The position numbers were made by a program, and so were the translations under genes. Source: [Phialemoniopsis] sp. UDSM-2020 (taxonomy: Eukaryota > Ascomycota > Sordariomycetes > Thyridiales > Thyridiaceae). From it: a stretch of DNA of 64,000 bases. This document shows, piece by piece, positions 700 to 48,143 of this stretch (its first letter is position 1; every line of letters starts with the position of its first letter). The stretch spans positions 3,534,001 to 3,598,000 of the forward strand of contig JAEILZ010000004.1 of assembly GCA_018873225.1 (NCBI GenBank), in the 5' to 3' direction. Below the pieces are notes generated by a model, which saw only the letters and a program-made list of their open reading frames with translations, did not search any database and was not told where the DNA came from.

Positions 700-1088
700 A
701 TGCCTCTATCCACCGAAGCCGTCATCGGTCTTGTAGCATTGATTTTAATGTGTATATCAGTTGTTAGAATCGTTTATCGGAAGGTATACCTCCGCCTACC
801 TTTCTCGCTAACCATCGGCACCCATAGCCGCCATCATGCGTCTGATCAAACTTTACAAATTGATTCTCGCTCTGATTCCATTCCTATAACTTCTCATGAA
901 GTTTATCTGTCCTCACGATAGGGGAATCTGGAAATGAGACTTTTGGAAGAAGGAGATTGTGAACATTTTAGTGCCAGAATATCTGGATCTGGCTAAGCCA
1001 ACATACTGAAAACTTGGTATACTGCCAGTAGCACATTCGGAATCTAGCCTTAATTCGAATTTGCGAGCCTTGGGCAGTCCTACGTTAG
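700..1088 (+). pseudogene. Membrane-microprotein family copy 1, interrupted
   Basis: This is a member of the two-exon small membrane-protein family of this window. It starts MPLSTEAVIGLVALILMC, a single hydrophobic span followed by basic residues. In the same frame a TAG at 919-921 interrupts exon 1. The frame then continues into the conserved MRLLEEGDCEH motif, ending at 966. The expected GT donor at 967 reads TTTAGT. A homologous exon 2 is still present at 1032-1088 (HIRNLALIRICE..., stop TAG), after a GTAG acceptor. The stop codon and lost donor make it a probable pseudogene. A C-to-T change (CAG to TAG) would fit repeat-induced point mutation, but that is inference. An upstream alternative donor could rescue a shorter product. 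Confidence 0.65.
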
Positions 1089-2163
1089 GGTCGCGTAATA
1101 TTTCGAAGGCATGTAGGAGGAAACTGGACTTTCTTGAGCGTCGCTGCCCAGACTGGAACATGGTGTTCTCGTTGTTTAGAGTGTTACCATGGCAGATTGT
1201 TCTTGGTTGTGTGTTAGCCTAGGTTTGCAGATCTTTGATCTAAAGCCGTCTTCAATCAGTTACCGTAAAAAGAAATGCAAGAAGCATTGCTGTGATCCTT
1301 CCGGATTGAAGTGACGATGATTTGACTGGGCACGCTATGCGATAAACACAAGTTGAGTATTTAAAAGTACCCGCTCTCGCGTCTCAAACCTATTCTAATT
1401 TGTGTCCAGGACTTTCTCCGTTGTGTCTACAATGTAATCACTGCATTGAATAGCAGTGACGGACAGATTGAGACAAAATTCCGGAGTCTAGCAGGGTAAG
1501 TCCCCAAACTAAGCCCACTGGTCAGTGTCAAAACTGGCTCAATTCTAACACTGGCCCAATTCTAACACTGGATCAAATGCAACACTGGTCAAACCCTCGC
1601 ATCGAAGTGGCCAATCCCACCCTGGGCCTGAACCCTTGCTAATGCTAGTGGCGCCGTGGCTTGTAAGCAGACCGGCTTGACTGGATGGTCAGCGCTAGCA
1701 TGGACGTTGGTGAGTGGGGTATTGATGTATCATCTGGTGTTTGGCAAGACCAGGATTGAGTCCGGACCCTGCCAATCAGTGATAGGTCATTTTCAGCCGG
1801 CCTACATGCACCTGCAGGTAGTTTGGAGCTCTTGGGTTGCTTCACTCGGGTACTACGTCGAGCAGGGGTCAATGCAATTGGGCCGCTGGCTGGTCACTGA
1901 TCATAGGTGTCTTGACGGACACTGCTAGGACAACACTCGGGCTGTGTGCCTGGTGCTGGAACTGCAGGTCGGTTGATGGGTGATCCAAGGGCCGCAGACC
2001 ACCTGCAGGTGCATGCAGGTTGGCTGGCACATGGGAGGATCCAGGGGCCAAGCATTGCAAAGTCTCCGCGCAATGCATATATAAGTCTCCAAGCCGATCT
2101 TCTAAGAGCTGCGTGTCAATGTGGACTCTGAGAAATACTCGCCGCATTCATATCCGCGTCTCA
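1089..2163. other. Intergenic repeat-rich stretch
   Basis: No gene is seen. Bases about 1515-1600 contain four imperfect tandem units built on AATTCTAACACTGG. Bases about 1950-2040 have repeated CTGCAGGT words. A TATA element for the next copy lies at 2076-2085. Confidence 0.5.
2076..2085 (+). promoter_or_regulatory. TATA box of copy 2
   Basis: CATATATAAG lies about 80 bp before the ATG at 2164. Similar elements precede most family copies at 65 to 170 bp, so each copy appears to carry its own core promoter. Confidence 0.5.
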
Positions 2164-2533
2164 ATGTCTCTCTCGGCAGAAGCCATTATTGCCCTGGTGG
2201 CTTTATTCGCCACATGTGTGCCCGCCGTGGCATTCTTCGCCAAGAGCCATCTTCAGTGTCTTGGAAGTCTCCCATTCACATTGGGAAGTAATCATTCGCC
2301 GCAACAATTCTCGTTGGCGTCCCGTAGACATGGAACGAGTAGCATGGATTCCATCCCCCCAACCGAGAATCAAAAGATCAACCCCCGACATCTTGAGGCT
2401 GGGCATGTGCAATATGTCAGTATTCCCATAGGCTCTTGTTGAGTCCAGAGAGTCTCCCACTAAACCAAGGTAGTGCATTCGAGAGATAGAAGTCACCCGA
2501 ATACGGGAGCAGAGTTGGTTCGTGGAGCACTGA
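2164..2533 (+). CDS. Single-span membrane microprotein, family copy 2
   Basis: Two exons, 2164-2415 and 2474-2533, join in phase 0 to give 103 residues. Residues 1-26 begin MSLSAEAIIALVALFATC, one hydrophobic span ending at a basic AKSH. The exon 1 C-terminus is RHLEAGHVQY, just before a GTCAGT donor. The 58-bp intron ends CCAAGGTAG and has a CTAAAC branch-like site. Exon 2 encodes CIREIEVTRIREQSWFVEH then TGA and aligns with exon 2 of the copies at 3497, 8196 and 30758. By the positive-inside rule the C-terminus would be cytosolic (inference). No known domain is recognised and the function is unknown. Confidence 0.75.
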
Positions 2534-3496
2534 CTATGGGCATGAACAAATGCCATACTTGTCTCGGCATCAATTATCCAAAATTGGTCAGCGTTTGGAG
2601 ATATAGGGTTCAGGTTAGGAGGCTTTGGAGTCAACGTCCTAGATGATCAAAAGCATACACGGGCCCCGAGAAAAAGCTCTCGAACAGGCTGGAACTTGGA
2701 TCGTGAATCATGGGGGCCCGAGCATCAATGCATCATTGATTCAAGTCTGCTTTTATTTCGGCTCATAGGCAACACTTGCCCGATTCAGGCATGCGGTAGA
2801 TATAAGGTTTTAGCGTCCATTCTGGTGTGTTTCAGCATGTTCAGTCTCGTGAGGAGTACGGTGCGAAGTATTCAATAAGAGGTTATAGGTCGCAGCCAGA
2901 ATTTGGACGCAAGTGAACACAGTCTGATGTTCTGTGAAACGTGGTTGAGCATTCAATCGCCAGGGTGCATGAGCCTGCTCACCAAAGACGGCGAGCCTGA
3001 GGGTTCACGCAATTCAGCTTCTGGGTGGGACCACATACGCCGCTAGACCTTATTCGTAGCGAGGAATCCTCGCCGCAAATTGGTACTAGCGTGGCCAGGA
3101 AGTAGGTACGAAGTCAATGACGAGACCCTTGGGCATATTCCAATCGCAGCCCCTCAGTGTATCCCTAACGTCAGCCAAACTCGGGATTGCTAGCATTTGA
3201 TGAATAAGTCTCTTAATCTCCGTATGGGTCAGTTTATGTGGCCTAGTTTTCAACCGCAAATTTCAGGCTCACAAAACGAACCTACTGCTATCTCCGAGCT
3301 CCCAGCATTTCCTTTTCTCCAGTGAAGATTATCTCGAGGAATTGTTCATTTGGATATTGTTCTCCCACTACGTGTCAGTGCCAACATATGTCTCGAGCAA
3401 ACTTCCGATATCAGCCTTCTATCTGTTCTGAACAGGCTACGCACTGCACTTGAATTGTTCGGTACTCAATCTCTTTGGGGCCTACCTTACTCCTTC
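2534..3496. other. Intergenic, carries one 25-bp dispersed motif
   Basis: No gene is seen. It contains the dispersed motif at 2793-2817, annotated separately, and otherwise featureless sequence up to copy 3. Confidence 0.5.
2793..2817 (+). repeat. 25-bp dispersed motif, instance 1
   Basis: The core is GTAGATATAAGGTTTTAGCG. It is near-identical to sites at 4035, 8966 and 22007, all on the + strand. This one lies about 260 bp after the stop of copy 2. Its role is unknown. Confidence 0.6.
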
Positions 3497-3866
3497 ATGT
3501 CCCTCACTGCGGAAGCTATCATTGGCCTTACGGCATTGCTCATCACATGCATCCCTATCGTCGGCTTTCTTTTCAAGAAGAGACACCTTCATTTTCCTAA
3601 TCTTCTACCATCAGGATTTAGACGTAACTCCTCCGCGCGGATGCTGCCTTTACCTTTCTCTGGAAATGGCAACATGTCTCCAGGTGTAAGACGCCAACTT
3701 CTGAGTCCTCGGTGTCTGGAAGAGGGATATATAGAAATTGTAGGTACCCGACGAGCTCTGTTTTCCTTTTGAGTAATCAAGATCGTCTCGGGCTAAGTAA
3801 AAGTAGCAGATACTGGAGACAGAGATAACTCGAGTACGGGAGCAAATGTTGACAGTGCGCCGTTAA
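3497..3866 (+). CDS. Single-span membrane microprotein, family copy 3
   Basis: Exons 3497-3739 and 3807-3866 give 100 residues in phase 0. The N-terminus MSLTAEAIIGLTALLITC forms one hydrophobic span followed by KKRH. The linker is serine and proline rich. RCLEEGYIEI directly precedes the GTAGGT donor. The 67-bp intron has GGCTAAGT as branch candidate and ends AAGTAG. Exon 2 reads QILETEITRVREQMLTVRR then TAA, matching copy 2 at I-x-E-x-E-x-T-R-[IV]-R-E-Q. This pairing of conserved exon ends across copies is the main evidence that the gene is real and spliced. Function is unknown. Confidence 0.75.
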
Positions 3867-4229: not shown

Positions 4230-4870
4230 CTGAGCAATTTGGTGCCGTTGGTGCGATTGGATTAGACTGGTTCTAATTGGTGACCGTGAATAAGACGATG
4301 TCTAGCGCCGCTAGATGGATTGAGAAAGTGAAGTACGGATATGTGCTTCGTGAAACCATTGGCAAGGGTCCCATGTCTGGTCATTGAAATTAGTAGAACG
4401 CCTAAAACAGCTTCCTTCACCCTGACCTTCTCCATACCCTTGTTTAGGGACTCCGTAGAGAAATTGTGATGTTGTGCTTTGAACGAAGAGCCCGTCACAC
4501 GGGCTGGTGTAGCGCAGGCAGTGTGGAGGTACCTCGTGGGGCGGCTCGATCGGGTGAGACCCTAGCGCCTATTAGATCTAGACCTCCACGGTCAGATCAA
4601 TTACTCTGTCTGGCATATCGGCAACAAAAAGATCTTAAAAAAAATGTTACCGCGACGACACGATGTTCTCGGTGCTCAATCGCACTTGTATCATGGCCAG
4701 GGACAATGCAACACTCACATTGGTGCAGACACGAGTAGGTCACCAGGTCGGCCGACCGGCGAAATGGGAAGCATGCAAGGAAGTGAAAGATGATCACAAA
4801 AGATCGACTGGCACCCAGGTCGCCCACACATTGGATCACATCAAATTTATCGCAAACGGTCGCCAGCGCA
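4230..4870 (+). repeat. Dispersed repeat R1, copy A
   Basis: By eye this stretch aligns over about 640 bp with 18980-19650. Shared blocks include GGGTGAGACCCTAGCGCC, TGGCATATCG and CACCCAGGTCGCCCACACAT. A partial third copy lies near 22755-22930. No open frame is conserved between copies and no terminal inverted repeat was recognised. It may be a decayed non-autonomous transposon. Confidence 0.6.
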
Positions 4871-6125: not shown

Positions 6126-6505
6126 ATGTCACTCTCTGCCGAAGCTATCATTGGTCTCGTAGCGTTGCTCATCATGTGTGTTCCTATCACTAGGACTCTC
6201 GTCAAAAAGGGCCATCTTCGCTTCCTCGACTTTCGCACGACCGATGCAGACCAGTGCAATGATCCTGAGGAGAATATCGGTCTACAGACTCCTGTACATG
6301 GTCCAATTTCTCCAGGTTCAATGACTCCTGATGGCCTTGTGCCATTTTCGAGACAGGCAGAGTTTGATATGCGGCAACTCGAAGAGGGGCGATTGGAGCA
6401 TGTAAGTAGCCCTCCATGTCGGGAAATTTGACCTAGTGCTAATGCAAGTAGTGTGTTTGGGAGGCGGAGCAATCTCGACTCGTTTGGACTCGCGTGCGGG
6501 GATAA
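6126..6505 (+). CDS. Single-span membrane microprotein, family copy 4
   Basis: Exons 6126-6401 and 6452-6505 give 109 residues. It starts MSLSAEAIIGLVALLIMC, with a span to about residue 26 and then KKGHLRF. RQLEEGRLEH ends exon 1 at a consensus GTAAGT donor. The 50-bp intron has GTGCTAATG as branch site and ends AAGTAG. Exon 2 reads CVWEAEQSRLVWTRVRG then TAA. This is the cleanest intron of the class with I-I-G-L-V-A-L starts. The linker is rich in D, P and S and is not conserved with neighbours. Function is unknown. Confidence 0.8.
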
Positions 6506-7194
6506 GCTGGTCTGCGCAGAGATGGTACAGCACTGCGACGTACTGTCGGGTTCGCACTGGGGGCGGTAATGACGTGCAACAAAGCAGAAGGGTAAGTTAA
6601 ATGTTGGGCATAAGCGACGAGGTACAATCTCAGTGGAGCACGAGGTCTGGAGGGACAGTATCGATCGGAGACATTCCCACAGGCCGAGAAAACTCAGGAA
6701 GGGGTGTTGTTGTACCTACCTACGTGATAGGCGAAGCGATGGCCAGCCAGATTCAGCACTCGACGGCTGTTCCGGCAGCTTATTCATCTATCCTACTAGC
6801 GCAAAGAACCCAAGGCACTGGCAGCCTCTGGATACCCACAAGACACTCGCGTTCCTGGTGCTGGTGGGGTTAGTTAGGCGGTTTCAGATATCATCAACAG
6901 AAGCTTTTACTTCAGTAAAGAACTCTTGCGTTAGTAAACATTTCATCTCACTTGTAAACGATTCTTAGGCTACCGAATAAAGCAGTCAAAAGCAGAAGGA
7001 GCTCAGCCCAAGAACATCGATGAAGGCAAACTGTTCCGAAGACTTTAATCTTACAGGGAGGATTTGGGTTCCCTAGGGTCAAGGATGGCCACTTGAATCT
7101 GACAGAGAGACGGTCAGAAGAACGAAGTGGACAAGGAAGTGAAAGGACAGGAAACGCCAAAAGTCGTGGGCGAGCCAAGAGTCGTGGGCAGGAC

Positions 7195-7405
7195 AAATGT
7201 CGAGGACGGGGCAGATGGACGGAGCAGATGGCAGGACGGGGCAGATGGCGAGGGCGGGGCAGATGGCGAGGACGGGGCAGATGGACGGAGCAGATGGCAG
7301 GACGGGGCAGATGGCGAGGGCGGGGCAGATGGCGAGGACGGGGCAGATGGCGAGGGGAGGGCAAATGTCGAGGGCAGGACAAATGGCGAGGGGGGGGGCA
7401 AATGT
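7195..7405 (+). repeat. GC-rich minisatellite
   Basis: About a dozen imperfect units of GGGGCAGATGGCGAGGAC type, alternating with a variant GGACGGAGCAGATGGCAG, run in direct tandem. All frames stay open on both strands because of the repeat, so the apparent Gly/Arg- or Pro/Ser-rich proteins are not credible genes. Confidence 0.85.
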
Positions 7406-7454
7406 CGTGGGCAAGCTAATTAGCGTAAGGTGATTGGCTCGTATCAGTCGGATT

Positions 7455-7590
7455 CTTCTGAGTTGCATGGGTCAGTTGGATTCTTCCTGGGTCACTTGGC
7501 TTTTCCCTGGGTCAATTGGCTTTTCCCTGGGTCAGTTGGCTATTTCGTGGGTCAGTTGGATTGGCCTGGCTTGCCTGGGTCACTTGGCCT
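7455..7590 (+). repeat. Tandem repeat of about 21 bp
   Basis: Five to six imperfect units based on CTGGGTCAGTTGGCTTTTCC run directly downstream of the minisatellite. Confidence 0.75.
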
Positions 7591-8195: not shown

Positions 8196-8581
8196 ATGTT
8201 ACTCTCCGCTGAAGCCGTCATTGGCCTCGTAGCACTTCTCGTGATGTGCATGCCAATCATGAAGATCATGGGCAAGAAGACCTATAATCTTCTTGGTGGA
8301 TACCTTGGTAGCACCAGGCAAACCTCAGCTCAACTGCGAGCCTTGATACCTGGGGAGGAGACCATGGCACCCAGGAGACCGGAGCAACAACAACATGCAG
8401 ACTCTTTACCGAAGTACAACGTCTTCGATCCTCGATTGCTGGAAGAGGGACACTGTGACCATGTCGGTATCCCTTCATATGTGTTGTAGTCAACGATGAA
8501 ACCCTAGCTGATTGATAGTAGTACATCCGGGAGATGTCTTCGGTTCGTGTTCAGGAGCAGGCCTGGGTCATTCGACGATAG
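8196..8581 (+). CDS. Single-span membrane microprotein, family copy 5
   Basis: Exons 8196-8462 and 8522-8581 give 108 residues. The start MLLSAEAVIGLVALLVMC is one hydrophobic span followed by GKKTYN. RLLEEGHCDH ends exon 1. The donor is the weaker GTCGGT; it is chosen because the phase-0 junction restores a homologous exon 2. The 59-bp intron ends GATAGTAG. Exon 2 reads YIREMSSVRVQEQAWVIRR then TAG, close to copies 1, 2 and 3. If the weak donor is not used, the frame stops after HVGIPSYVL. Function is unknown. Confidence 0.7.
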
Positions 8582-10022
8582 ATGCTGCGGGCTCGGGTAT
8601 GGTTTGTCGCGTTGGTCAGAAGAACCCCGTTTGTTGGTATGCGGGTTGATCGCTGCAAATCTTTCTCACCTTGTGTCTGAGAAGTCTCTTGGTACAGAAC
8701 ATCGTCCCAGCGAGTTAATTGATAAAATCCTACATGAGCGTCTACACTAGGTTTTCAGGTTGATGGGATCACATAGCATATTACTGAGATTGATTCCGTT
8801 TTGTGTTGTTTATAAAGGATAGGGATGGTGCTACTCAATTTATAAGGATCCATCTTGTAGTTCAGATCAGACAGCTCATAGTCTTGTCATCAAAACGCTG
8901 TGCTTATGCGATACAGAGTGAATCGCCGCCCTTGAGGGCGTCCATGGATCGTTTGATCGGGGCATGCTGTAGACATAAGGTTTTAGCGTCTCGATTGGTC
9001 TGTACCCACATTGCACTAGCTCGCAACGCAAGGCGCGTTTACCTCCGCGAATTGGTCGCATTTCCACCACGAGTGAGCATTAAAGAATCAAGTAATTGTT
9101 GCACTGGTCGTGATCGATACTTGGACGAAGGCGAAAGAGTTTCTAGTTTAAGTTACAAGAGTGTTCGACACAAATGTTCCTGAGCTTTGTGACCGAAAAT
9201 GACGGACCTGGCGGCCCACACATTTCACCTTCTAGTGGAGATGCCCTGTTCCTTGGAGACGGCACAGCTAGTCCCAATTTGTAGCGAAAATTTCTTGGCA
9301 TTAATCGGCGCTGAAAGAAGCCTAGCTCTAATCGCAGGGACGCGAAGGGTCATACAAGCATCAACTTTTACGTGCCGCCTTTGCCAGCCATCGATCTCGG
9401 CAGGACCGGGCGAGTAGGATCTGCAGGCAGAGGAGAAAATAGGTGGATCTCAGCTGCTCTGACAATCTCTCCGTGACTTATGACGTACAGGAAATACCGA
9501 TTGTTTCTGGGCTTCCAAGGTTGCGACGGAGGCGTCCCACTCCAGCGCTGCGTCGCCTATCGACTGTGTAGTAGACAGTCTGGATCCAGCCGAACACGCC
9601 TTTGTACAAGTTCACCATCTTGCATCTTACTTTTCTTTAGCCAGTAAAGATTTTTAATGTCCCAGCTTAGTGCTCTAGGCCTGAGCGTACTGTTGTCGAA
9701 ATGTAGCATCGACACTAAAGATTGTTTAGCGTGCTGCGCAATGGACCCTGCTTTCCAATGCCATACCTGCTGCTTCTGAGCTTGAGGGGCATGGGTGCAA
9801 TTTGACCCCTGTGTGCACAAGCCTTGTACGTATGTACTTGTACATAAGGGTGGGCTTCCCAATAACCCCTGTATGGGAAGGCCTTCACATTCACCCCTGT
9901 ACGGTAGGTGGTTCTGAAGCTTGAAGTCCGATATGAAGTCGGCGCTGCCAGTTCAAACAGATGTAATGGATTTTGGTTTCCAGCTTCACCCAATAAAACA
10001 TAATTGCAGACCTCTTGCTTCC
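8582..10022. other. Intergenic
   Basis: No gene is seen. It holds the 25-bp motif at 8966-8990. At 9800-9905 ACCCCTGTA-like words recur three times shortly before copy 6. Confidence 0.5.
8966..8990 (+). repeat. 25-bp dispersed motif, instance 3
   Basis: The core is GTAGACATAAGGTTTTAGCG. It lies about 385 bp after the stop of copy 5, the same orientation and side as at copies 2 and 3. Confidence 0.6.
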
Positions 10023-11248: not shown

Positions 11249-11613
11249 ATGGCTTTCTCGAAAGGGATGTCCATTGTCATAGCGGCGTTTCTTATGACCT
11301 TCATTCCCGGTATCAAGTATTTACGGTTTCTCTCGCGGGGAAGCTACATTCGGTCGTGCCTTGTGGCGGCTCTTGATCTTGCTGGAGACTGTATTACCTC
11401 TGTGCAAGATACGAGGTTGCGATCCAACCATGGAACAAGCTATTCTCAGCCCCCCTCTGTGTGTAGCCAGCTAGGCACAAGACCAAGAACGCCGCCTTTG
11501 AACGACCAAGTTGAAGATGCCACCCAGGTAAGTGCTTGTCAATCATACAGGAGCGGATCAGTGCTCACCTTTGACAGCATCCTCGAAGATTCAGAACTCG
11601 CCCACAGAACTGA
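11249..11613 (+). CDS. Divergent membrane microprotein, family copy 7
   Basis: Exons 11249-11527 and 11578-11613 give 104 residues. MAFSKGMSIVIAAFLMTF followed by IPGIKYLRFLSRGSYIRS keeps the span, the I-P-G bend and the L-R-x-x-x-R-G pattern of the second class, but has lost the T-E-A start. V-E-D-A-T-Q replaces L-E-E-G-H and is followed by a consensus GTAAGT donor. The 50-bp intron ends TTTGACAG. Exon 2 is short: HPRRFRTRPQN. It could be a decaying copy. Intron retention would give a longer open frame to 11641. Confidence 0.55.
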
Positions 11614-14600
11614 AGGCAAGGATGCACGATTCGAAATTTAGAAAACGCAAGGGCCGTTGACGTGGCATGGGGGAAATGACCATAGTTCGGTGCCAGGTTA
11701 TTTGAGCACTATTCAGAAGGATCTGTATCAAATAGTGGTGGAAAGTAAGAGGGCAACAGATTGAGAAGCACAGCCATGTGGAAGGAAAGACTGTGAGTGC
11801 AGGGAAGATATTGAATCACAGAGACGACCAGCATTTGGGAACACAACACTAGGTCAGAAAGCACATTAAATGTGACATTAACAGTCATGTACATCGTGTC
11901 TCGATCTTACGCATCATTGAGTAGACTGAATGAAGCTAGCTATGTGGATTATCAGCCAGCACCAAGTGCTCTATATGTGGCCCTACGAAATGAATGCCAC
12001 GAATGCAACGAATGCTATGTGAGATGATCAACATCAATCGGCTTGCGCTCTAGGCAAGACAACCAATTCCGACACAGTACACCCACACACTTTATACAAC
12101 ACAATGAACACAACGAATGTTATAGTTTGCTTGTTCAGGCAGCGCCTGTTCAGTACTGCAGTCGAAGCAGTCTCCCCAAGCAACAATCTGTATGGCAGCC
12201 TGAGTCCTTGAGTATAAGGCGTCTCTTCTCCCCTCCCCACCCCCACTCAAGCAAGATGGTTAGAAGTCGCCATCTTTAGGAAGAGAGAAAGACAGGTTAT
12301 CAAGTTGTGTTCACAGTTTAAGGTAGACATCACAAGAGTAGTGACGCATATCATACCGGGGAAGTCAAGACTCATACAATGACCATGTATGGCTTGGCTG
12401 ACATGCTCGAGTAGCGGATGAGTAAGAGCTGTTCCAGCTTTCAGACTGGAGGCGGTATGGCCGAGGTGCTCGACAGCCGGGGCAACTCGGTACAGGTACC
12501 CTGGTCTACCTAGGGCGGAAAGGATCCGGTGATACTTACACCCCACCCCGCCTCTGCACCTGAGGAAATTGCATTGGAAAGCAATTAAGTTGTGCCAAAA
12601 TAGGCAAAAGAAACACCCTCGGCATCATATCATCAGTCGAAGGTGTTCCCAAGGGGGCGTGCGGTTGTCGACGCCAAACAAAGCCACCCCATGCACCAGA
12701 CCGGAAGGCTCCGGTTCAAGGACTACAAGAGGTCTATCATGGAAGTCGCCAGCTGTCATGAGGGTTCGGATGAGGGCCTCGGAAATGTCATGCTGGGTCC
12801 CGGTTCCCCGGATGGAAAAGGAAATCTCACATATCCTTGCGAAAGCTACTTTAACCCGCGTACGCTGTAGCATTTTGTTTTGGCTCGTGTCGGTGCTGTG
12901 TATAGGTGATTTTCCTTTAGTGTGCTTCGCCAGGCGAGCGAGCCCTAGCTACTGCTGTACGAGCGTCACGGGTGGCTGCCCCTCCTTGGGCTGAAGCCCA
13001 GTCTCACCGTAGCGAAGCTGACGTGACAGATCTTCAGGTCTGAGCGCCTTCTCGAGTCCTCCTCTACGTTGAAACCGCCCAACCCTCCTCTTCGTCATTG
13101 GCCATCTAGGCGGGAAGTTCGAAAATGCCCAGAAATCAAGTACTGTTCAACACAGGCCAAACATTGGAGCCGCTGTCCCAAGAGCTGCATCAGCGCGCAC
13201 GCCAGCTCTCATCCAGACATATCTGCTTTGATTGGTGCCTTCCTCGTTAGGGAGTCTTGCTGCTATCTTGCTACATTCATTACATTCGTTTCGTCCGAGT
13301 ATTGCTATACAAACAGGGTGACTTCGGTCAGTGGGGTGCCTCCCTTCAGATTCGTAGCAAGTCCATCCATGCGCACGCACACAGCCAATGGTGTTGGCTA
13401 GAGGTGGAACAGACCACCCGTACGCATATCATCCCTAGGATACCAGTCCTTTTACCCTGCCTCATCAATCAGGAGACCTAGAAGGCATGCACGTGCTTAA
13501 GTGCGGTACCTACCTGCATCCTTATACGAATTTTGCTTTTTGGAACTTGGTTTTCCGAGAACCTGGTTTGACAAAGTACCTACGTTGGTATCTTTGATTA
13601 ACCGCTGTGCCGGGGCCACGGGGCAAGGAAGTGTAAAGCTTAAGGCTGCAGCGAGACAGGGATCCGGTGAGGGCGCGCCTTGGCAGGGGCAGAAGGGCCT
13701 GGAATTTTGATGGTGGAACCCCGCGGACCTACGGGAGCCAAACCTGTATCATTCTTGATAATGAAGAAGCCGACGCGGAACGCGGGAGTTTGAACCCGTC
13801 CTTAGGCGAGCGGTAGGTGTGCCCCTATCCCTTTGATATCAGTGGATGATGACAGGCGGATAAGGAGAAGAACGCTCTCGCTATGTCCCATTCCGCGTCT
13901 GGGCCGGACAAAAGCACAAGCCATGGTTCCCACGAGTGTTGATCTCTACTGCAGTTCTGTCACTTCTCAATTTCATGATCTCGTAGTCTCTCATGGCGTC
14001 ATACCCCCTTGAATCCCGGCAAGGAATGTCCAATGGAATCTTAGACGGCGAGGAATCTTGCATTGACAGGAAGCATTTGCTCGTCCATATCTTGATTCTT
14101 CAGCAAGTGTTTATTGAACGCTCTGTCCGGCTGCGGTTTGAATCATCACTGTGAATAGTGACGAGGAGCTCTGAGTAATTGATATGGAACGACTTTTGAT
14201 AGAAACATGGATCTCGGAGCCAGGGACCATCCGATCTGGTGGAATGCAGCAGTAGATTTTGCCGATAATCTGGGGTGTGCTGGAAGGGTGGAGCCAGTGC
14301 AGCAATATGCAAGATAAGAGACCTGCCAGAGAGAAGAATTGTAGTCAACGGGGTGTGGCTCTACCGAGTCCGACCCAGCCAGCCCGAAAACTCGGGAAAC
14401 GCCCCAACAAGGCGGAAGAGAAATTCAAGAACTCGATGAGGTGTGAGAGCTAGGACCCGGGAGTGAAACAGTGACCTGTGTCGCCTTTGCAGGGGGCGCA
14501 CAACGGGCCGCGTGGCTGCGGCAAACAAAGCAAACAACCGAACGCAATGATCCGTATGGTCGATAAATCGGGTCCAATATCTGCCAAGCATTTTGTGTTT

Positions 14601-14995: not shown

Positions 14996-15415
14996 ATGAC
15001 ACTGTCTACCGAAGCAACAGTGGCCATTGTGGCCTTGTTTGTCACATGCATCCCCGGCACCATTCTCCTACGAATGCTCATCCGACGAGGGTATCTGAGA
15101 TGCGTCCCTGTCTTCCATACCACGGCAGATCGTATAGCACACCATCAGCTGCCCAGATATTACGACACTTCCCATTCGGCCATGTCCCCGGCTTCGATTT
15201 CTCAAAGTGAGCCTGTGATGACATCAACGACACAAACACCGAGTCCTCGGATGCTCGAAGAATGTCATGCTTACCAAGCAAGTGCTATCACCCACGGTGT
15301 TGAACGGGCTACATACTGATCTACAAGGCAGAATCGTTACGAGACACGGGTCTTTACCACAATCGAGCATGCATGGGTACAATCTCAACAGATATATCGT
15401 AGTCTTAGGGACTGA
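14996..15415 (+). CDS. Single-span membrane microprotein, family copy 8
   Basis: Exons 14996-15277 and 15332-15415 give 121 residues. It starts MTLSTEATVAIVALFVTC and continues IPGTILLRMLIRRGYLRC. The exon ends RMLEECHAYQ. The donor is GCAAGT, a GC-AG intron, as in three other copies. The 54-bp intron ends AAGGCAG. Exon 2 encodes 27 residues, including E-T-R-V-F-T-T-I-E-H-A-W-V-Q-S-Q-Q-I-Y, collinear with exon 2 of the copy at 26952. The histidine- and tyrosine-containing linker is variable. Function is unknown. Confidence 0.78.
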
Positions 15416-17879: not shown

Positions 17880-18310
17880 ATGTCTCTTTCCCCAGAAGCA
17901 ATCATTGCTCTGGTTGCACTGCCTATCATGTGCATTTCAGGTACGATGATTCTGCGATGTTTCATCCGAAGAGGCTATTTCAACTTGTGTTGCCCGGGGA
18001 GGACACGCGTCAGCAATCGTCCTATTATTGTCCAAGAATATGAGCTAGGCAGCCTTCAGGGAGATGACACCAATTCTCGGCCCCTATCAATTTGGAATTG
18101 GCTTGGTCTCAGACCGAGAGCATCCACCGTCGATCTTCGACTCGAAGACAGCCGTCCAACTCATGTAAGTGTAGAAGCCCTAGTCGAAAGCAGGCTAACG
18201 CTAATTCCTGGAAGCATGGCAACGAGTCGAGAACCATCCGGAGGAGCGAGGTGGCATGGGCGCGCTCTGAGTGCTTTCATCAGGAGGCCCAAGCTCTGCT
18301 TGACGCATAA
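17880..18310 (+). CDS. Single-span membrane microprotein, family copy 10
   Basis: Exons 17880-18164 and 18215-18310 give 126 residues. MSLSPEAIIALVALPIMC is followed by ISGTMILRCFIRRGYFNL. Exon 1 ends LRLEDSRPTH at a consensus GTAAGT donor. The 50-bp intron has a perfect GCTAAC branch and ends TGGAAG. Exon 2, 31 residues, begins HGNESRTIRRSEVAWARSE. This aligns with the E-x-R-T-x-x-x-x-E-x-x-[WY]-x-R-S motif of the other second-class copies. It is among the best-supported splice structures. Function is unknown. Confidence 0.8.
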
Positions 18311-26951: not shown

Positions 26952-27375
26952 ATGACTCTCTCTACCGAAGCGATATTGGCCATTGTGGCTTTGTTTGTTA
27001 CATGCATCTCTGGCCCTCACATTGTTCGATGCCTAATCCGGCGAGGATATCTGAGGTGCTTCCATTCTCTACAATCCGCAAGTGAGGACACGGCCCGGTC
27101 CCAAAGTCTTGAAAACTACAGTCTTGCCTCTTCGAGTCCTTCCTCGTCCTTCGACTCAAGTCATGAGCTTGGAGTCGTGGCAAGAGAGCCACCTTCAGAT
27201 CTTCGAATGCTGGAAGAAGGTCATGCTTTCCATGCAAGTACTCGCTGACTACCATTATGTATAGTGAGGTACATGCTGACATTTTACTCAGGATGCCCAT
27301 GAGATACGAACTTTAACGACGAGGGAGCATACATATTCACGATCTCAACGTATATATCACGCTAAACGGACCTGA
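26952..27375 (+). CDS. Single-span membrane microprotein, family copy 13
   Basis: Exons 26952-27233 and 27292-27375 give 121 residues. MTLSTEAILAIVALFVTC then ISGPHIVRCLIRRGYLRC gives the span and basic stop. The linker is serine-rich. Exon 1 ends RMLEEGHAFH at a GCAAGT (GC-AG) donor. The 58-bp intron has TGCTGACAT as branch site and ends TTTACTCAG. Exon 2 includes D-A-H-E-I-R-T-L-T-T-R-E-H-T-Y, collinear with copy 8 over 27 residues of equal length. Function is unknown. Confidence 0.8.
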
Positions 27376-28364: not shown

Positions 28365-28575
28365 CAGCACTGCTTTTTTGACCCTTGTAGGGATTTTTTG
28401 GCAGTACTGCTTTTTTGACCCCTGTAGAGATTTTTTGGCAGTACTGCTTTTTTGACCCCTGTAGGGATTTTTTGGCAGTACTGCTTTTTTGACCCCTGTA
28501 GGGATTTTTTGGCAGTACTGCTTTTTTGACCCCTGTAGGGATTTTTTGGCAGTACTGCTTTTTTTTACCAAGAGC
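28365..28575 (+). repeat. 37-bp tandem repeat, about six units
   Basis: Near-identical units built on CAGTACTGC, T6, GACCCCTGTAGGG, A, T6 and GG are repeated head to tail. The unit length is not a multiple of three. Open frames across it on the minus strand (lysine- and glutamine-rich) are repeat artefacts. Confidence 0.9.
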
Positions 28576-30370: not shown

Positions 30371-30758
30371 CTACTGACGAGATCGACTATACTGGCGCCG
30401 AAACAGCTTTTGCTCCCTAAGTTGGGTCATTTCAATCTGTTGAATGCACTAAGGCGGCCAGTATAAGTCAAGGCTGATTATCGTGGGCGAAAGGGGTACT
30501 TGCCTCTTCCAGCTGCTCCCAGCGAGCACGACCACCTAAAGAGATGCTAAGATTTGGCGCCGTGGGGAATTCGGGTGTCAGAAGACCGAGCTCACTATCA
30601 GATGATGCCCTATGGCCCGCCATATTATTGCTGGTTGGATGTAGACCAAGACAGCGGAGATGTCCCATCTTCACTAAATACGAAATAATGAAGGTACTAG
30701 GGAGACACATCACGATCAATGCGATCAGGGCGATGGTAGCTTCGGTTGACAATGTCAT
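30371..30758 (-). CDS. Single-span membrane microprotein, family copy 15
   Basis: Exons (minus strand) 30758-30504 and 30448-30371 give 110 residues. MTLSTEATIALIALIVMC is followed by LPSTFIISYLVKMGHLRC. Exon 1 ends RWEQLEE at a GCAAGT donor (GC-AG). The 55-bp intron has CTTGACTT as branch site and ends CGCCTTAG. Exon 2 reads CIQQIEMTQLREQKLFRRQ..., clearly the same type as copies 2 and 3. It therefore combines a second-class start and GC-AG intron with a first-class exon 2. Function is unknown. Confidence 0.78.
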
Positions 30759-34618: not shown

Positions 34619-38088
<3,470 letters not shown>

Positions 38089-40521: not shown

Positions 40522-41249
40522 TAAGCCCAGAGGTCGGTTTTGCGATGACGATGACGCTGCTCCTGTCCAGAATGACTGTGGGGTAAAACACACACAGAGC
40601 AGTACAAAGCATTTGGGCTTGGGCGCGCTGGTGGGCGGGGAAACTTTTGGGGGAACGGCCCAGGAACCAAACAAACAAGGGACAATTACCAATCTAATGT
40701 AGCTGTTAGTGGCGGTTCCGCCGATGCCGGCGATAAGCTATCTCTCTCTAGTTCAAAAGAAGTCTGAAAGGGGGGAACTCTGGGGAAGGGAACTTGTCAT
40801 TTTCTGATCATGCAGCCATCCCTTGTTTCTCGACTAACCTTGTTCCTGTGCTCAACCCCCTCGTCACGCGGACGATCCCAGATAGGCACTTTGAAAGAAA
40901 AGCTAGGCCGAACCGGGGGTAGCAATTGGGTGCCAGCCGTTCAGAGATACGCATAGGTAAGGTATCTATCATTGGGTACCCCGCTTCGATTGATTGCGGT
41001 CATACTGACGGCCAAACTGACGTGGCAACTAAACTGTAAGACAACACCGAGCCTAAAAAGCCAAGCCAAACACGACCTAGTCAGTGTCTTTGAATGAAAG
41101 CTGCAAGCCACGAAGGAACAATCACACTCCCGTCTTCTGCAGTTGACGGCCAGCCAATAAGCAACGCGCGGGAACTAAGCGCTCTGCATCCGGCGGGCGT
41201 TTTCATTTGTCTAAAGATAGTCAAGTATTATGTATGACGCTGTTCGTGT
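40522..41249. other. Intergenic between regulator and oxidase genes
   Basis: Promoter region of the minus-strand regulator. An open frame extends upstream of the chosen ATG but starts only at TTG. Nothing else is recognised. Confidence 0.45.
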
Positions 41250-42696
41250 CTACAACTTGGACGTCCTCTTAGCGTCAAGCAGGTCCGCCATCTCAAATCG
41301 CGGGTAGTCAGGGTTGACCGATGGCTGCGGCCGCTCCCGGTCCCAGGCCCATTTCTGGACCAGCTCGGGCGACAACTCCCCTTCTAGCATCTGCACGATG
41401 TACTTGCCCAGCACAGGGAAGAACTTGTACCCGTGGAAGTTGCCGCATGTGGCAACGTACAGGCTCTTTGCCGCAGAATGCGGAGAAATGATAAAGTCGG
41501 CGCTCGTGGTGAAAGCGTCCCTGCAGAAAGAGTCAGCACAAGGGTCTCACTCTTCACACAATGCGATGTAACACAGACTTACCAGCAGATTCGGTGCTTC
41601 TCCATCGTCCAGCTGGCACCATTCTTGCCGTAGAAGACCTTGTTTGCATGGTTGATGTCCTCCTTGAGCCTCCCCGAGACTTGCCACTGTGCGTAGTCTG
41701 GTTCCGCTGGAGGAGCCGAGAGGAAGCGCCCAGGGAGCACCTCTCGTGTGTTTTTGAAGATGGTCTGCCCCCACCACTTGAGCTCCTTGTCTGGTGTTGG
41801 CGGTAGACTGCCGATAAACGGGCCTGCGGTTCCGAGGTCAGCTGGCCATCGTGCAGTAACACTAGCATGAAAAGGGGCAAATCACCTGTCGCGGCTGTGT
41901 ACCCCTGAACTCCGACCGGCATCGAGGCAAACCTCTTGTACGACTCGTTGTCAAGCTTGGTCATGCCCGTGGTAATTCCACCAGCGACAATTCTCGACCC
42001 AGCCCTGAGATCAGTAAGTCCGCTGCTTGCTGCACTGTACTCTAGCAACTTTGGCGTGTACGCTCCGGTGCAGAGCACGGTATGTGTAGCCGTCAAATCA
42101 TCACCTTTTGATGTCCTGATTCCAGAGCAGCGGTTATCCCTATCAAAGAGCAAGCCTGCCACTTCTCCCACGTGATACTTGACACCCAGATCCAGCGCCT
42201 TGCGCGTCACCGCCCGCAACGCATCACCGGCGGCTGCCCAGCCACTCGTCTTGTTGATCAGCACCTCCTTGACGCCCGTGTAATCGGCGTCCTCGAAAAG
42301 CCCGCCATACAACTTGCGCGCCTCCTCAATGGGGTACGCCGCCAGGTCGGCCGTCCGGCCTAGCTTCTTGTAGTTGTTGATGACGTCCTGCGCGTAGTCA
42401 CTGCGGCACATCCAGTAGATGCCCGTCTCGTGGAAATACGGCTTCCAGAGCGGGTCCGTCTTGAAGATGTCCTGGGCCTCGAGGGCCAGGCGGCAGTAGA
42501 CGATGTCGTCGTAGTCTGCGCGCACCACCTTGTTCCAGTCCCAGGACGCGGCGACGCGGCTCTCGGCGTCGTAGGCGTCCCGGTCGACCAGAGTCACCGA
42601 CGCGTGGGGATACTTCTGGATCAGGTGATATGCAGTCGAGACACCGAACACGCCTGCACCGACGATGATGTAGGACGACGTGTCGGTGGCAGCCAT
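41250..42696 (-). CDS. Sarcosine oxidase / fructosyl amine oxidase-like flavoenzyme, peroxisomal
   Basis: Three exons on the minus strand, 42696-41886, 41823-41583 and 41520-41250, with two 62-bp introns, give 440 residues. YIIVGAGVFGVSTAYHLIQK is the FAD-binding Rossmann motif. The segment RICWDAFTTSADFIISPH contains a Cys at the covalent-FAD position of monomeric sarcosine oxidase and fructosyl amino acid oxidase. ATCGNFHGYKFFPVLGK is the conserved C-terminal flavin loop. The protein ends in SKL, a peroxisomal PTS1 signal, fitting a peroxide-producing oxidase. In this cluster the likely substrate is sarcosine (to glycine, formaldehyde and H2O2). Fructosyl-amine or saccharopine oxidase activity cannot be excluded by sequence alone. 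Confidence 0.85.
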
Positions 42697-43481
42697 GGTG
42701 ACTGACGGGGGGACTGGTTGATGGGAGTGTGCGGGGATCGACAAGGCCAGACACACACAAGACCCTTGCCACGATGACTACGAGCTGACAACGGAGGACT
42801 CAGGAGGCGATTGTATGCAAGACGGTGTTTGAAGACTCTTGAGACAGAAAATCGCATTTATGCTGCAAAAGTGCCAAAGTGCGCTACGGGGTTACTTCCC
42901 GATGTCGTCGGCAGGGCGAAAGGAACCAAAAGGAGGGGTGGGTGGAGCCCGGGAGCGGCCTCTGGCAAGCGGCTCTCTCATGAATATTACTACATTGGCC
43001 GATGGATCTAGACACACTTTGAATGACAGCATGGGGATTCGAAGCACACCTCGATGCTGCCCAAGCCCAGTGCGCTTGCATCCGACTGGACCTCCTGCTT
43101 GGTTGCTGCTGGCTGGTAGTAGTGGTACGGGCTAGCACCGATCAGCTGAGCGTATCTGGTGTGTGGTGCGTATATTGAGACACGGCGATCTTCCCCCGAG
43201 GGCCGATCATGTGATCGCACCGGTCCATGATAAGCTCGAACCGCAGGCATTGTGTATGATGCATGGGGAAGTGTCAGATATCGATCCCGCGATTGGGTTT
43301 GCCTCCCTAGCCAGGTACATGGGCAATGTATAGATAGGCAGAGGCCGATAATATATGAGACGGGCTTGATGGTGCCTCTCAAGAGAGTAGGGGCTCAGTG
43401 TACTAGCAGTTCAGTCGAGCACAAGCTATCAATCTACTCTTTGAGTCCACCTCCAAACAAAGACACAAGTGACAGACCAAA
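42697..43481. promoter_or_regulatory. Divergent promoter of oxidase and Rieske genes
   Basis: A 785-bp gap separates the divergent ATGs at 42696 (minus) and 43482 (plus). It is the natural shared control region for two steps of the proposed pathway. I do not identify a specific operator. Confidence 0.5.
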
Positions 43482-44860
43482 ATGCTGGAATTTACCACAT
43501 TACATTCACCAAATCTTCTTCTCTTTGGCCTGTCGGCCTCCGCGTTTGCCATGATCCTGACCCTGCTGTCGAGATACCTCGGCCGCGGGTCGGCGGCCCA
43601 AACCGAAGATAAGGCATCTGCAGTCAGGGCCCTGCCCGGATCATGGTACACATCCCAGGCCATGTACGATCTTGAGAGAAGAGCGATCTTTTCCAAGAAG
43701 TGGCTTCTTACTACGCACCAAGCTAGACTGCCCAACACGGGAGACTGGCTCCAGTACGAGGTTGCCGACTTCAAATTCATCATTGCCAAGGACCGCACCG
43801 GTTCTATCAATGCCTTCCACAACGTCTGCAGACATCGTGCCTTCCCAGTTGTGACGGAAGAGAAGGGCAACAATAGCATCTTTGCCTGCAAATACCACAA
43901 CTGGACGTACGGTCTCAACGGCAAGCTCACAAAAGCCCCACAGTATCAAGAACTCGAGGGTTTCGACAAGTCCAAGAACGGGCTCTTTCCCATCCATGTC
44001 CACATCGACACCAATGGCTTCATCTGGGTCAACATGGACAGCGCCGAGAAGCCCACCTCGTGGGACAACGACTTTGATGGCATCGACCAGCAAGCTAGGT
44101 TCAAGGCTTACAAATGGGACGACTACGTCTTTGACCACACGTGGGAGATGGAAGGAGAGTACAACTGGAAGATCTTGGCCGACAACTACAACGAGTGCTA
44201 CCACTGCCCCACGACGCATCCCGACATTCCCAGCATTGCCGACTTGGAGGCTTACGCAGTCAAGACGGAAAAAGGCTACGTCCAGCACCTCGGCAACCCC
44301 ACAGCAGAGCAGATCGCCAAGGGCTTCAACGTCTCTGCGACGTACTACTTCCCCAACGCCTCGATGAATGTCTCGTAAGTAGCCTAGAACAACCCAATCT
44401 TCCTCATTCATCAACATCAAATACTAACCTCCTTTGACCTTCAAACAGACCACACTTCTTCTTCATGCAGCGCTTCGTCCCCAAGGGCCCCCACAAGTCC
44501 GTCATGCGCTACGAGGTCTACCGCAACAAGAACTCGAGCGACGACGACTTCAAGGCCATCAACGACATCTACAAGCGCATCATGTCCGAGGACAAGTACC
44601 TGTGCCTCAACGCGCAGAAGAACATCAACTCGGGCGTCTTTGTCAACGGCGAGCTGCACCCGCGCATGGAGCAGGGGCCGTTGTACTTTCAGAAGTCGGT
44701 GCGCGAGGCCGTCACGGCGCACCATGCGCAGGAGGTGCGGGAGAAGAGGGAGATCTGGCCCGCCAGGCAGACGATGCCTGGCTCGGCGACGGTGAGCAAG
44801 GATGATATTGGGTTCTGTTCAACTGTGGACTGTTCGAAATTGAAGGCTTTGGATTGGTAG
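43482..44860 (+). CDS. Rieske oxygenase, choline/glycine betaine monooxygenase-like
   Basis: Exons 43482-44374 and 44449-44860, with a 74-bp intron (GTAAGT donor, ATACTAACC branch), give 434 residues. A hydrophobic segment at residues 11-29 may anchor or target the protein. The Rieske [2Fe-2S] motif is Cys116-x-His118 and Cys136-x2-His139 (CRHRAF, CKYHNW). The catalytic-domain iron site is DNYNECYHCPTTHP, with His241 and His246. These are signatures of the choline monooxygenase and GbcA-type oxygenases. With dimethylglycine-dehydrogenase- and sarcosine-oxidase-like neighbours, demethylation of glycine betaine to dimethylglycine is the best guess. Choline oxidation is the alternative. A reductase partner is not seen in the window. 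Confidence 0.85.
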
Positions 44861-46412: not shown

Positions 46413-46781
46413 CTACAGGGGTGTGGGCCATTCATTAACGGCCATCTCCAATCGTTGGTGGTACTCAAGGTCTCCACGGAGTTGATCAATGACGCCGTCC
46501 CAGTCTTGAAACAACCGGGTCCGGATGGAGACTAGGATGTCTACCAAGGCCGCCTTCTTCAGGAACGCGAGGTGGGGAGGTACGACTTCGGGCTCTGTGG
46601 CAAGTCCGTGATGCGGAACCCAGTCGTTATTGATCTGGAAGATTCTGGATTCCAAATCACGGACCCTCTCCATCTTCTCCTCGAGTGTGGCGTGGTCTTC
46701 TTTGATTCGAGTTCGAAGTGAAACACTTCTTAAGTAGCAATTAAAACTGATAGAGTCACAATGAGAATGAGAGCAGCGCAA
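46413..46781 (-). pseudogene. Truncated zinc-finger array paralogue
   Basis: The frame carries only the C-terminal helical half shared with the neighbours: VRDLESRIFQINNDWVPHHG, LATEPEVVPPHL, then ALVDILVSIRTRLFQDWDG and a stop. The finger half and micro-exon are not found upstream. The first about 30 residues of the frame do not resemble the family. It is a 5'-truncated copy, or uses an exon I could not identify. Confidence 0.6.
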
Positions 46782-47748
46782 ACCGGGCTTAGATCAAATT
46801 CACTTCAATCCAGCCTCGATATCATATAAATTCGACTGTCAGTTTGGTAAGAGTGCAACTAAGGCCGAATAAAGGCGTTTCAGGGGTTTGCTTTCTCACT
46901 ACAAACAATTGACTCGATCTCAGCTAGAAGTCTTTATTCGAGATTTCTTGAACGATAATGACGGTAATGCCGAAAGAGAAATGTATCGTGTATTCGATCA
47001 AGGAAATCGGTTCTGAGACTGTGATTATGGACTTTGAGAGATAATCTGGAGAGCTATGTACCCGTGGCCCACTGCGATGATGGTGAGTAGATCTTTTCCA
47101 AGCGGTGTTAGTAGTAATCTGTGCGGGAGAAGGACGCCCCATTAGAAAGCCTCTTCCGCTGAACTATCGGGCGTCGAGGTGGCGGCGGTGGTCCGGACGA
47201 CATCGAGGCGAACGCTACTTGTTGTAAACTAATATGAAAGATATCTGCGTGTCCGTAGGCCTCATTCGTGCCCTAACCACTTTCTGCCACCCAGTCACCA
47301 GGTGAAGTGAGGGTTGCCCCACCTGAAGTACAAGCGAACGCAGCCTGGTGCCTGAGAATGACTCGGAGATTTTCACACCACACGTGGTATGCGACAATCT
47401 CAATGGTCAACAATAGGGGGACTTATGCAACCTCCCAGAAGTCTGTCCCACTCCCCTTCAAATGTCCTCCAAATGTCAAAAGCGACAGTGGGCCCTTATA
47501 TCGTAAGTTGATCTTCCCACCTGCGGTGCCACATCCCGTCCCCTCTTACTCGAACACACTTTGAGAAGCTCAGATATGTCGTAGAAGCAGGGAAGTTTGT
47601 GGTATAAAGCCTATCTCCCATCCTCCCAAAGCGAGAAGAGATGGTCTTCATGCATTACAGTTGATACTTCATTTTCAGTAAACATATAAAAACTGCGATC
47701 TAACATACATCTTCCAGTCCGTCTTGTTGGAAGTCGGCATTGTTGCTC
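46782..47748. other. Intergenic
   Basis: No gene is seen. The right end is the promoter of the microprotein gene at 47749, with a TATA box at 47683-47692. Confidence 0.45.
47683..47692 (+). promoter_or_regulatory. TATA box of copy 16
   Basis: CATATAAAAA lies about 60 bp before the ATG at 47749. Confidence 0.5.
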
Positions 47749-48143
47749 ATGCCTCTCTTAGATGAAGCTACTATCGGCCTTATCGCATTGCTCATCTCGT
47801 GCATCCCTGGTGGCATTGTTGTCAGCAGGTATCTTTCCACGAGGCAGCGTTTTAGGGCTTCTCCTCTGCTTCCTACTGCTGCCGAACTGGCCAGGTCTCG
47901 GGAGTCCAGGCTTCGTCAGGCTGGCTACATTAGCAGAGACTACAGGTACTTGCTCAGTGCTGGCCCCGCGCCGAAGCTCAGTGGTGCAACCAATGTGTCT
48001 GGCCGAGGATCGTGGGAGTCTTTAAACGTATTGTACTTCTTAAATATCTAGAGGAACTGTTGCTGACCTCCCTATCGCACATACAGGTGACGGAGACGAC
48101 CCGCACCCTCCAGCATGCCTGGGAAAGACAGGAGCCACAATGA
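47749..48143 (+). CDS. Single-span membrane microprotein, isolated family copy 16
   Basis: Exons 47749-48027 and 48087-48143 give 111 residues. MPLLDEATIGLIALLISC then IPGGIVVSRYLSTRQRFR gives the span and basic stop. Exon 1 ends RGSWESLN; the donor is GTATTG. The 59-bp intron has TGCTGACC as branch site and ends ACATACAG. Exon 2 reads VTETTRTLQHAWERQEPQ, matching the E-T-x-R-T and H-A-W motif of copies 8 and 13. It lies 17 kb from the rest of the family, on the opposite strand to the surrounding zinc-finger genes. Confidence 0.75.

What the first reader, a model, noticed from the sequence alone, without database searches (positions are those of the whole stretch)
700..48143. Dispersed family of at least 14 two-exon membrane microproteins, apparently undescribed
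Small genes of 100 to 126 codons recur every 1 to 7 kb through the first 31 kb, with one outlier at 47.7 kb. All share a start like MSLSTEAIIALVALLVTC, one hydrophobic span, a basic stop, a variable linker, an intron at the same place and a short conserved exon 2. I can name no characterised protein with this layout. I have a vague memory of similar N-termini in uncharacterised fungal proteins, which I cannot verify. Conservation of span, junction motif and exon 2 against a diverged background suggests selection on a real protein. This is the strongest candidate for a new system in the window.
Basis: partly seen in the sequence, partly recalled or inferred. Interest (0 to 1): 0.88.

Follow-up and report, generated by a model that had tools for sequence, protein, structure and literature searches.

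The report
Fungal array of small membrane proteins
A fungal chromosome carries a run of small, duplicated genes for one-span membrane proteins whose opening stretch natural selection has preserved; similar openings occur in unnamed proteins of other fungi, and their job is unknown.

Summary
A profile scan of the window finds 12 copies with an intact start, 11 in the first 31 kb and one at 47749. Eleven have a two-exon frame of 100-126 aa with a phase-0 intron of 50-76 bp. Copy 700 is broken; copy 10023 has lost its splice donor. Three more (11249, 16230(-), 29538(-)) are diverged or truncated. Six further copies lie outside the window, two 9-11 kb upstream and four on contig C1. Codon positions 1/2/3 of the first 36 codons differ at .41/.24/.60; the fast linkers of the 17 complete copies hold 0 stops in 911 codons against 24 and 51 in shifted frames, broken copy 700 left out. 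Exon 2 is recovered leave-one-out in 14 of 18. No Pfam, NCBIfam or PDB match in 12 of 17 scanned; no transposon signature. The same span with other tails occurs at two more places in this genome and in hypothetical proteins of named ascomycetes. Best reading: membrane-anchored adaptors with a short outside N-terminus, conserved span, disordered cytosolic linker and C-terminal motif. Topology follows from sequence; function is inference.

The parts
700..1090 (+). C1, broken copy: intact start and span, in-frame TAG in exon 1, donor lost (TTTAGT); exon-2-like remnant near 1032
   Evidence: exon 2 not recovered leave-one-out
2164..2533 (+). C2: exon 1 2164-2415, intron 58 bp GT-AG, exon 2 2474-2533; 103 aa
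3497..3866 (+). C3: exon 1 3497-3739, intron 67 bp, exon 2 3807-3866; 100 aa
6126..6505 (+). C4: exon 1 6126-6401, intron 50 bp, exon 2 6452-6505; 109 aa; exon 2 weak
   Evidence: exon 2 not significant
8196..8581 (+). C5: exon 1 8196-8462, intron 59 bp, exon 2 8522-8581; 108 aa
10023..10446 (+). C6: exon 1 10023-10304, would-be intron 76 bp with donor TTGAGT, exon 2 10381-10446; 115 aa if spliced; probably not spliced normally
11249..11641 (+). Strongly diverged, marginal copy; open frame with span and a GTAAGT donor
   Evidence: (E=0.05)
14996..15415 (+). C7: exon 1 14996-15277, intron 54 bp GC-AG, exon 2 15332-15415; 121 aa
15960..16233 (-). 5'-truncated copy: post-span part of exon 1 from 16230 down, exon-2-like motif at 16004
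17880..18310 (+). C8: exon 1 17880-18164, intron 50 bp, exon 2 18215-18310; 126 aa
20039..20432 (+). C9: exon 1 20039-20293, intron 58 bp GC-AG, exon 2 20352-20432; 111 aa; exon 2 weak
   Evidence: exon 2 not significant
26952..27375 (+). C10: exon 1 26952-27233, intron 58 bp GC-AG, exon 2 27292-27375; 121 aa
29155..29538 (-). Diverged copy with span retained (MSLPVQLTAATVLFFIMCIS...)
30371..30758 (-). C11: exon 1 30758-30504, intron 55 bp GC-AG, exon 2 30448-30371; 110 aa
47749..48143 (+). C12, outlier: exon 1 47749-48027, intron 59 bp, exon 2 48087-48143; 111 aa; longest branch in the tree

Best explanation
A locally multiplied family of small single-span membrane proteins that act as anchored adaptors. 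SHOWN BY SEQUENCE: protein-level constraint on the N-terminal 36 residues; invariant L3, E6, A13, L14 and C18 in the 17 complete copies; one hydrophobic span with no second one; an acidic or neutral N-flank and a basic C-flank; a fast linker that stays open; a short C-terminal motif of the type ..LEEGH..H / CIRETETTRTREQxWVRR, split by a phase-0 intron, in most copies. INFERRED: the short N-terminus lies outside the cytosol and the tail inside it (positive-inside rule); the conserved span (E6, A7, A/G10, A13/L14, C18, P20) packs against a constant membrane partner or against itself; the linker is a disordered spacer; the C-terminal motif binds one conserved cytosolic factor. The copies would then differ in spacer, or in when they are made, not in anchor. 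The array arose by repeated local duplication with steady loss of copies.
For: 12 copies in the window and 6 more with full models in the genome. Codon-position differences .408/.235/.598 in the first 36 codons of 17 copies.255/.088/.528 in C6, C7, C9, C10. NG86 in that stretch, 13 chosen pairs: dN 0.08-0.41; dS 0.65-2.64 in 12, not computable in 1. Linkers of the 17: 0 stops in 911 codons against 24 of 894 and 51 of 894 in the shifted frames; the 18th copy, C1, left out of that count, has 1 stop in 53. Exon 2 recovered in 14 of 18 leave-one-out. Charge layout: N-flank -2 to 0, the 15 residues after the span +1 to +4, in 18 of 18. AlphaFold model of exon 1 of C7: helix 5-30, blocks of residues 1-30 at pLDDT 84-88, the rest 49-65. 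Tree: C6-C10 together (starred), C1-C5 with U1 and U2 one fork at 90/90, the four C1-contig copies with C12 at 86/83, as local duplication predicts; only 3 of 15 inner branches are starred. The same span with a different tail at C4:3653381 and C1:4769085 and in outside ascomycetes.
Against: No expression or splicing data; the function is not shown by anything here. Exon 2 has no helical amphipathicity above shuffles, so an amphipathic or coiled-coil reading of the motif is not favoured. Exon 2 is weak or absent in C1, C4, C9 and U1, and over all 17 its second codon position (.539) is no more conserved than its first (.494). Outside the first 36 codons dN is 0.40-1.23 with dS 1.16-3.11 (10 of 13 pairs computable), in C9/C10 1.09 against 1.17, so tail constraint is weak and a constant tail function may hold for only some copies. 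Exon boundaries were chosen by eye for resemblance before the leave-one-out test.
Confidence: 0.45

Rival explanations
1. A genetic-conflict or self/non-self family: small membrane proteins whose fast tails and copy turnover are driven by recognition between strains, possibly with a nearby NLR as partner.
For: Rapid tails and gain and loss of copies. A NACHT/DUF7791 ORF lies about 4.5 kb from copy S2 on contig C1. In Neurospora, lineage-specific genes cluster with HET-domain genes (PMC10684091, only the start of the abstract seen, in the listing).
Against: No NLR or HET domain in the 20 window ORFs scanned, nor in the ORFs scanned beside S3 (2) and S4 (4); shorter or split genes were not scanned. 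The exon-2 profile reported no match in that NLR ORF. A 19-residue exon-2 query found 3 places in the genome at E<=10, all in family members (S1, C2, S4); it missed the other copies, so its sensitivity is low. Fungal genomes hold many NLRs (general knowledge), so one neighbour is weak evidence.
Confidence: 0.18
2. Secreted small proteins: the hydrophobic stretch is a cleaved signal peptide and the tail is exported.
For: The stretch is at the very N-terminus, and small multi-copy genes with fast mature parts are typical of exported fungal proteins (general knowledge).
Against: No K/R before the stretch and a basic cluster right after it in 18 of 18, the reverse of a signal peptide; no fixed cysteine pattern in the tail (alignment). 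The predicted helix runs unbroken through residues 5-30. No signal-peptide program was available.
Confidence: 0.1
3. Cargo or remnant of a mobile element.
For: Copies on two contigs, some broken. One 109-bp direct repeat pair (73%) lies either side of U1 (L044:8317-8424 and 9852-9951), and one 42-bp inverted repeat lies before C2 (1794-2026).
Against: In the self-comparison of 12 loci (E<=1e-4, 60 bp or more) similarity between copies stops at the genes; neither of those two repeats recurs at other copies. No transposase domain in the 40 ORFs scanned. Constraint on the span. The genome searches list about two dozen copies or partial matches in 44 Mb, a lower bound. The 583-bp non-genic pair (4316-4862 / 19071-19644), searched by its 426-bp core, occurs only twice.
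Confidence: 0.04
4. A dead array: ancient genes now drifting, with open frames left by chance.
For: C1 broken, C6 donor lost, 16230 truncated, exon 2 not distinguishable in C4, C9 and U1; near-neutral tails in some pairs.
Against: 0 stops in 911 linker codons of the 17 (1 in 964 with C1), against about 38 in 911 at the rate of the shifted frames; second-position constraint in the span between old duplicates.
Confidence: 0.05

Closest known systems
Uncharacterised ascomycete proteins with an N-terminal [ST]xEAIIALVALFVTCxP span (P0004 A. udagawae IFM5058_00942; P0011 Pleomassaria siparia; P0012 Xylaria curta; P0013 Penicillium canescens; P0014 A. heterothallicus)
   Same: Same extreme N-terminal span, basic stop after it, small size (72-164 aa)
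   Different: Tails do not align with each other, and I saw no LEEGH / CIRETET motif on reading them; E-values 5e-5 to 1.5e-2, so the weaker ones could be convergent
P0024 (environmental, 178 aa) and P0001 (environmental, 89 aa)
   Same: Best N-termini found: E=7.7e-7 with a joined profile of 12 copies holding no outside protein, and 1.5e-3 with the window-only profile
   Different: Downstream sequence differs; intron and exon 2 could not be checked because the contigs were not available
Two loci of the same genome with the span alone: C4:3653381 (MSMSTEAIIALVAVFLTVLGALWRIWRHYRRR...) and C1:4769085 (MALSAEAIIALIALFIAIIPVTSMI...)
   Same: Same start, span and basic stop
   Different: Open frame ends about 50 codons in; no exon-2 match downstream of the C4 locus; C1:4769085 not tested with the exon-2 profile
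Fungal small secreted proteins / effectors (general class, recalled)
   Same: Small, multi-copy, fast-evolving outside the N-terminus
   Different: Charge layout is that of a membrane anchor with an inside tail, not of a signal peptide
S. pombe wtf meiotic-driver family (recalled, not tested by sequence)
   Same: Clustered multi-exon genes for membrane proteins with many broken copies (recalled)
   Different: wtf proteins have several spans (recalled); these have one

Membership tests
Fungal N-terminal STEA-span proteins (unnamed) | Span of the type STEAIIALVALFVTCxP within a few residues of the start | tested here: met
   12 window copies (the profile selects for it); outside relatives
Fungal N-terminal STEA-span proteins (unnamed) | Basic stretch right after the span | tested here: met
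   +1 to +4 in the 15 residues after the span, 18 of 18 copies
Fungal N-terminal STEA-span proteins (unnamed) | Same tail or intron | tested here: inconclusive
   Tails of 19 of the 23 proteins do not align (P0016, P0019, P0021, P0023 were left out); their genes could not be read
Secreted effector | Cleavable signal peptide with basic n-region | tested here: not met
   No K/R before the span, basic after; no signal-peptide program was available
Transposon-encoded gene | Shared element boundaries or terminal repeats around copies | tested here: not met
   Self-comparison of 12 loci: matches between copies confined to genes; apart from them one 583-bp pair, local tandem repeats and one repeat pair either side of U1 only
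NLR-linked cell-death or amyloid-motif partner | Motif shared with an adjacent NLR | tested here: not met
   Exon-2 profile reported no match in the one NLR-like ORF near S2; only that ORF piece was tested
Any Pfam, NCBIfam or PDB family | Profile or sequence match | tested here: not met
   12 of 17 complete proteins (A3): best E 0.069 (Pfam), 0.13 (NCBIfam), 0.46 (PDB)

The most novel reading that the evidence does not exclude
The span is the founding piece of an unnamed superfamily spread through filamentous ascomycetes: one conserved membrane helix reused with ever-changing cytosolic tails. In this fungus it has become a 60-kb locus whose copies compete or diversify in recognition between strains, with a private C-terminal motif as the docking signal.
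Probability: 0.2. Interest if true: 0.75.

Novelty: new variant of a known kind. Interest (0 to 1): 0.45.

Why it matters
Small single-span proteins are easily missed in fungal annotation, above all when an intron, in some copies with a GC donor, splits off the last 17-31 residues. This family gives a selection-backed case with 17 complete gene models in one genome, a conserved helix and motif to test, and outside relatives in Aspergillus, Penicillium, Xylaria and Pleomassaria, which belong to several ascomycete classes (classes recalled). If the span docks to one constant partner, finding it would give the whole group a function.

Tried and rejected
Amphipathic C-terminal helix: exon 2 plus the preceding 8 residues has no helical moment above shuffles (17 copies, z -1.8 to +1.4); the mean moment is highest near 140 degrees, which I cannot interpret.

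NLR-partner motif: no match in the one ORF tested.

RIP as cause of divergence: TpA/ApT 0.70 and (CpA+TpG)/(ApC+GpT) 1.30 in 1-31000, much as in the rest of the window and six other loci; no RIP signature.

Known RNA: no Rfam family reaches its gathering score in the window.

Relatives in prokaryote and viral contigs: 118 and 51 pattern stretches, none confirmed; a DNA pattern of the N-terminus had 0 matches in viral contigs. Expected for a fungal family.

Literature: 6 searches. No paper on such a family appeared in the listings; only PMC7072748 was opened, passages only.

Weak outside hits: P0021 and P0023 (WW-domain proteins, E 2.2 and 4.6) look convergent and warn against trusting matches above about 0.1. 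In this genome a hit at C4:946146 with stops inside was dropped as chance, since the profile scan found nothing convincing in that locus (L053). A frame at L048:6364(+) (ISFSFEAGVALVVFIITCVP..., no ATG) entered the profile and so scored E=2e-16; I did not count it as a copy. A hit at C4:3653381 I first set aside after a look at one strand only; read on the right strand it is a real match to the span without exon 2.
Full report
WHAT IS THERE. The window is C6:3534001-3598000 of a 44.2 Mb, 11-contig genome, fungal by my reading of its genes, short introns and relatives. An iterated profile of the N-terminal 40 residues finds 12 starts in six frames of the window at E<0.01. Adding loci from elsewhere in the genome brings in 29538(-), 16230(-) and, marginally, 11249. 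Whole-genome searches with single proteins add U1 (C6:3522869) and U2 (C6:3524894), 9-11 kb left of the window, and S1-S4 on contig C1 at 662247(-), 664151(-), 6839034 and 4998603. Two more places carry the span with another tail: C1:4769085 and C4:3653381. One further frame, L048:6364(+), scored only after entering the profile and is not counted. These searches score only the best candidates, so the totals are lower bounds.

GENE MODELS. For 17 copies the end of exon 1 and an AG-preceded exon 2 give proteins of 100-126 aa with a phase-0 intron of 50-76 bp. Donors: 12 GT, 4 GC (GCAAGT in C7, C9, C10, C11), 1 TT (C6). GC-AG introns are 1.009% of annotated fungal introns in PMC7072748 (passages seen), so four of 17 is unusual, though C7, C9 and C10 sit in one clade and need not be independent. 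Leave-one-out exon-2 profiles against 1500 random stretches of the window: 14 of 18 copies were matched by at most 2 stretches; C1 (606), C4 (289), C9 (206) and U1 (344) were not distinguished. I chose the exon-2 boundaries by eye first, so this tests consistency, not splicing.

SELECTION. In 17 copies codon positions 1/2/3 differ at .408/.235/.598 in the first 36 codons.663/.640/.719 in the linker.495/.441/.685 in the LEEGH stretch and .494/.539/.658 in exon 2. In the four C1-contig copies exon 2 gives .264/.405/.603. In exon 2 the second position is not the most conserved, so its protein-level evidence is weaker than that of the span. NG86 on 13 chosen pairs: first 36 codons (30-36 aligned) dN 0.08-0.41, dS 0.65-2.64 with one pair undefined; the rest dN 0.40-1.23, dS 1.16-3.11 with three undefined. 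dS is near saturation, so ratios are rough. The linkers of the 17 hold 0 stops in 911 codons while the two other frames hold 24 and 51 in 894 each. C1, left out of that count, has 1 stop in 53 linker codons; the 18 copies were picked by their N-terminus, not by an open linker. The span is under clear protein constraint; the tail stays open but changes fast.

ANATOMY. Invariant in the 17: M1, L3, E6, A13, L14, C18; nearly so A7 (16), S4 (15), P20 (15); position 10 is A (11) or G (6). One hydrophobic stretch, usually residues 7-25, mean Kyte-Doolittle 1.99-2.77; no second one beyond residue 45. Charge before it -2 to 0, after it +1 to +4. By the positive-inside rule (established knowledge) the tail is cytosolic. 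The AlphaFold model of C7 exon 1 (18-row alignment) is a helix 5-30 followed by low-confidence chain, mean pLDDT 63.9. Exon 2 has no amphipathic helix above shuffles.

SURROUNDINGS. The first 31 kb has 2 stop-to-stop frames of 200 aa or more over six frames, the next 33 kb has 19; at 150 aa it is 11 against 40, with 2.85 and 4.75 in shuffles. Among 20 window ORFs scanned, those with Pfam matches begin at 34.6 kb: a dimethylglycine/sarcosine-dehydrogenase-like protein (DAO, FAO_M, GCV_T), a second DAO protein and a Rieske ring-hydroxylase, then a glyoxalase, gamma-glutamyltranspeptidase, CLN3 and an O-methyltransferase. Left of the window are esterase, sugar-transporter, MFS and luciferase-like ORFs. 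No partner gene recurs beside copies among the 40 ORFs scanned. A NACHT/DUF7791 ORF lies about 4.5 kb from S2. DNA similarity between copies is confined to the genes. The other repeats are local tandem arrays, a 109-bp pair either side of U1, and a 583-bp non-coding pair at 4316-4862 and 19071-19644 (71%), whose 426-bp core occurs twice in the genome.

RELATIVES. A window-only joined profile of 11 copies found one protein, P0001, E=1.5e-3. An exon-1 profile that included P0001 and other copies of this genome gave 23 hits at E<=10 among 7994 scored candidates, 12 of them below 0.01 counting P0001 itself, whose E is inflated by inclusion. Nine of the 23 carry an organism name, all ascomycetes. 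They share the span and mostly the basic stop; 19 aligned tails do not match. The joined profile A3, 12 of 17 complete proteins and none from outside, found P0024 at 7.7e-7 and nothing else up to E=10. No Pfam, NCBIfam or PDB match in those 12.

HOW IT PROBABLY WORKS. Anchored adaptor: constant helix in the membrane, flexible spacer, short docking motif. Helix, orientation and constraint follow from sequence; partner, location and role are inference. That the same span carries other tails at two more loci of this genome and in other fungi fits an anchor with a constant partner. Rivals are listed with odds. NOVELTY. The proteins are undescribed as far as these searches reach, but the kind (small, multiplied, single-span proteins with fast tails) is familiar.

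Noticed in passing
window 4316-4862 and 19071-19644: 583-bp non-coding stretch, 71% identical; its 426-bp core occurs only at these two places in the genome. Blocks are better conserved than the linkers of the microprotein genes; possible regulatory or RNA element, or a duplication relic.
   Followed up: partly
window 34619-44378: Dimethylglycine/sarcosine-dehydrogenase-like protein (DAO + FAO_M + GCV_T), a second DAO protein and a Rieske ring-hydroxylase side by side: looks like a betaine breakdown cluster.
   Followed up: no
window 1-31000: 31 kb with few long open frames apart from the microprotein genes, without RIP signature; unusual for a compact fungal genome.
   Followed up: partly
window 27896-27935: Exon-2-like stretch (80% over 40 bp to that of C7) with no exon 1 that I could recognise before it.
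   Followed up: partly
window 28327-28601 and 7168-7582: Tandem arrays: a 37-bp unit, and G-rich 18/66-bp and 20-bp units.
   Followed up: no
C4:3653381 (L061) and C1:4769085 (L052:4085): Span-only relatives in the same genome (MSMSTEAIIALVAVFLTVLGALWRIWRHYRRR... and MALSAEAIIALIALFIAIIPVTSMI...); the second lies near an ORF with a weak ankyrin match. Perhaps other branches of the superfamily.
   Followed up: partly
L044:8317-8424 and 9852-9951: 109-bp direct repeat pair, 73%, either side of copy U1; the first begins right after the sugar-transporter ORF, so it may be a duplicated gene end.
   Followed up: partly
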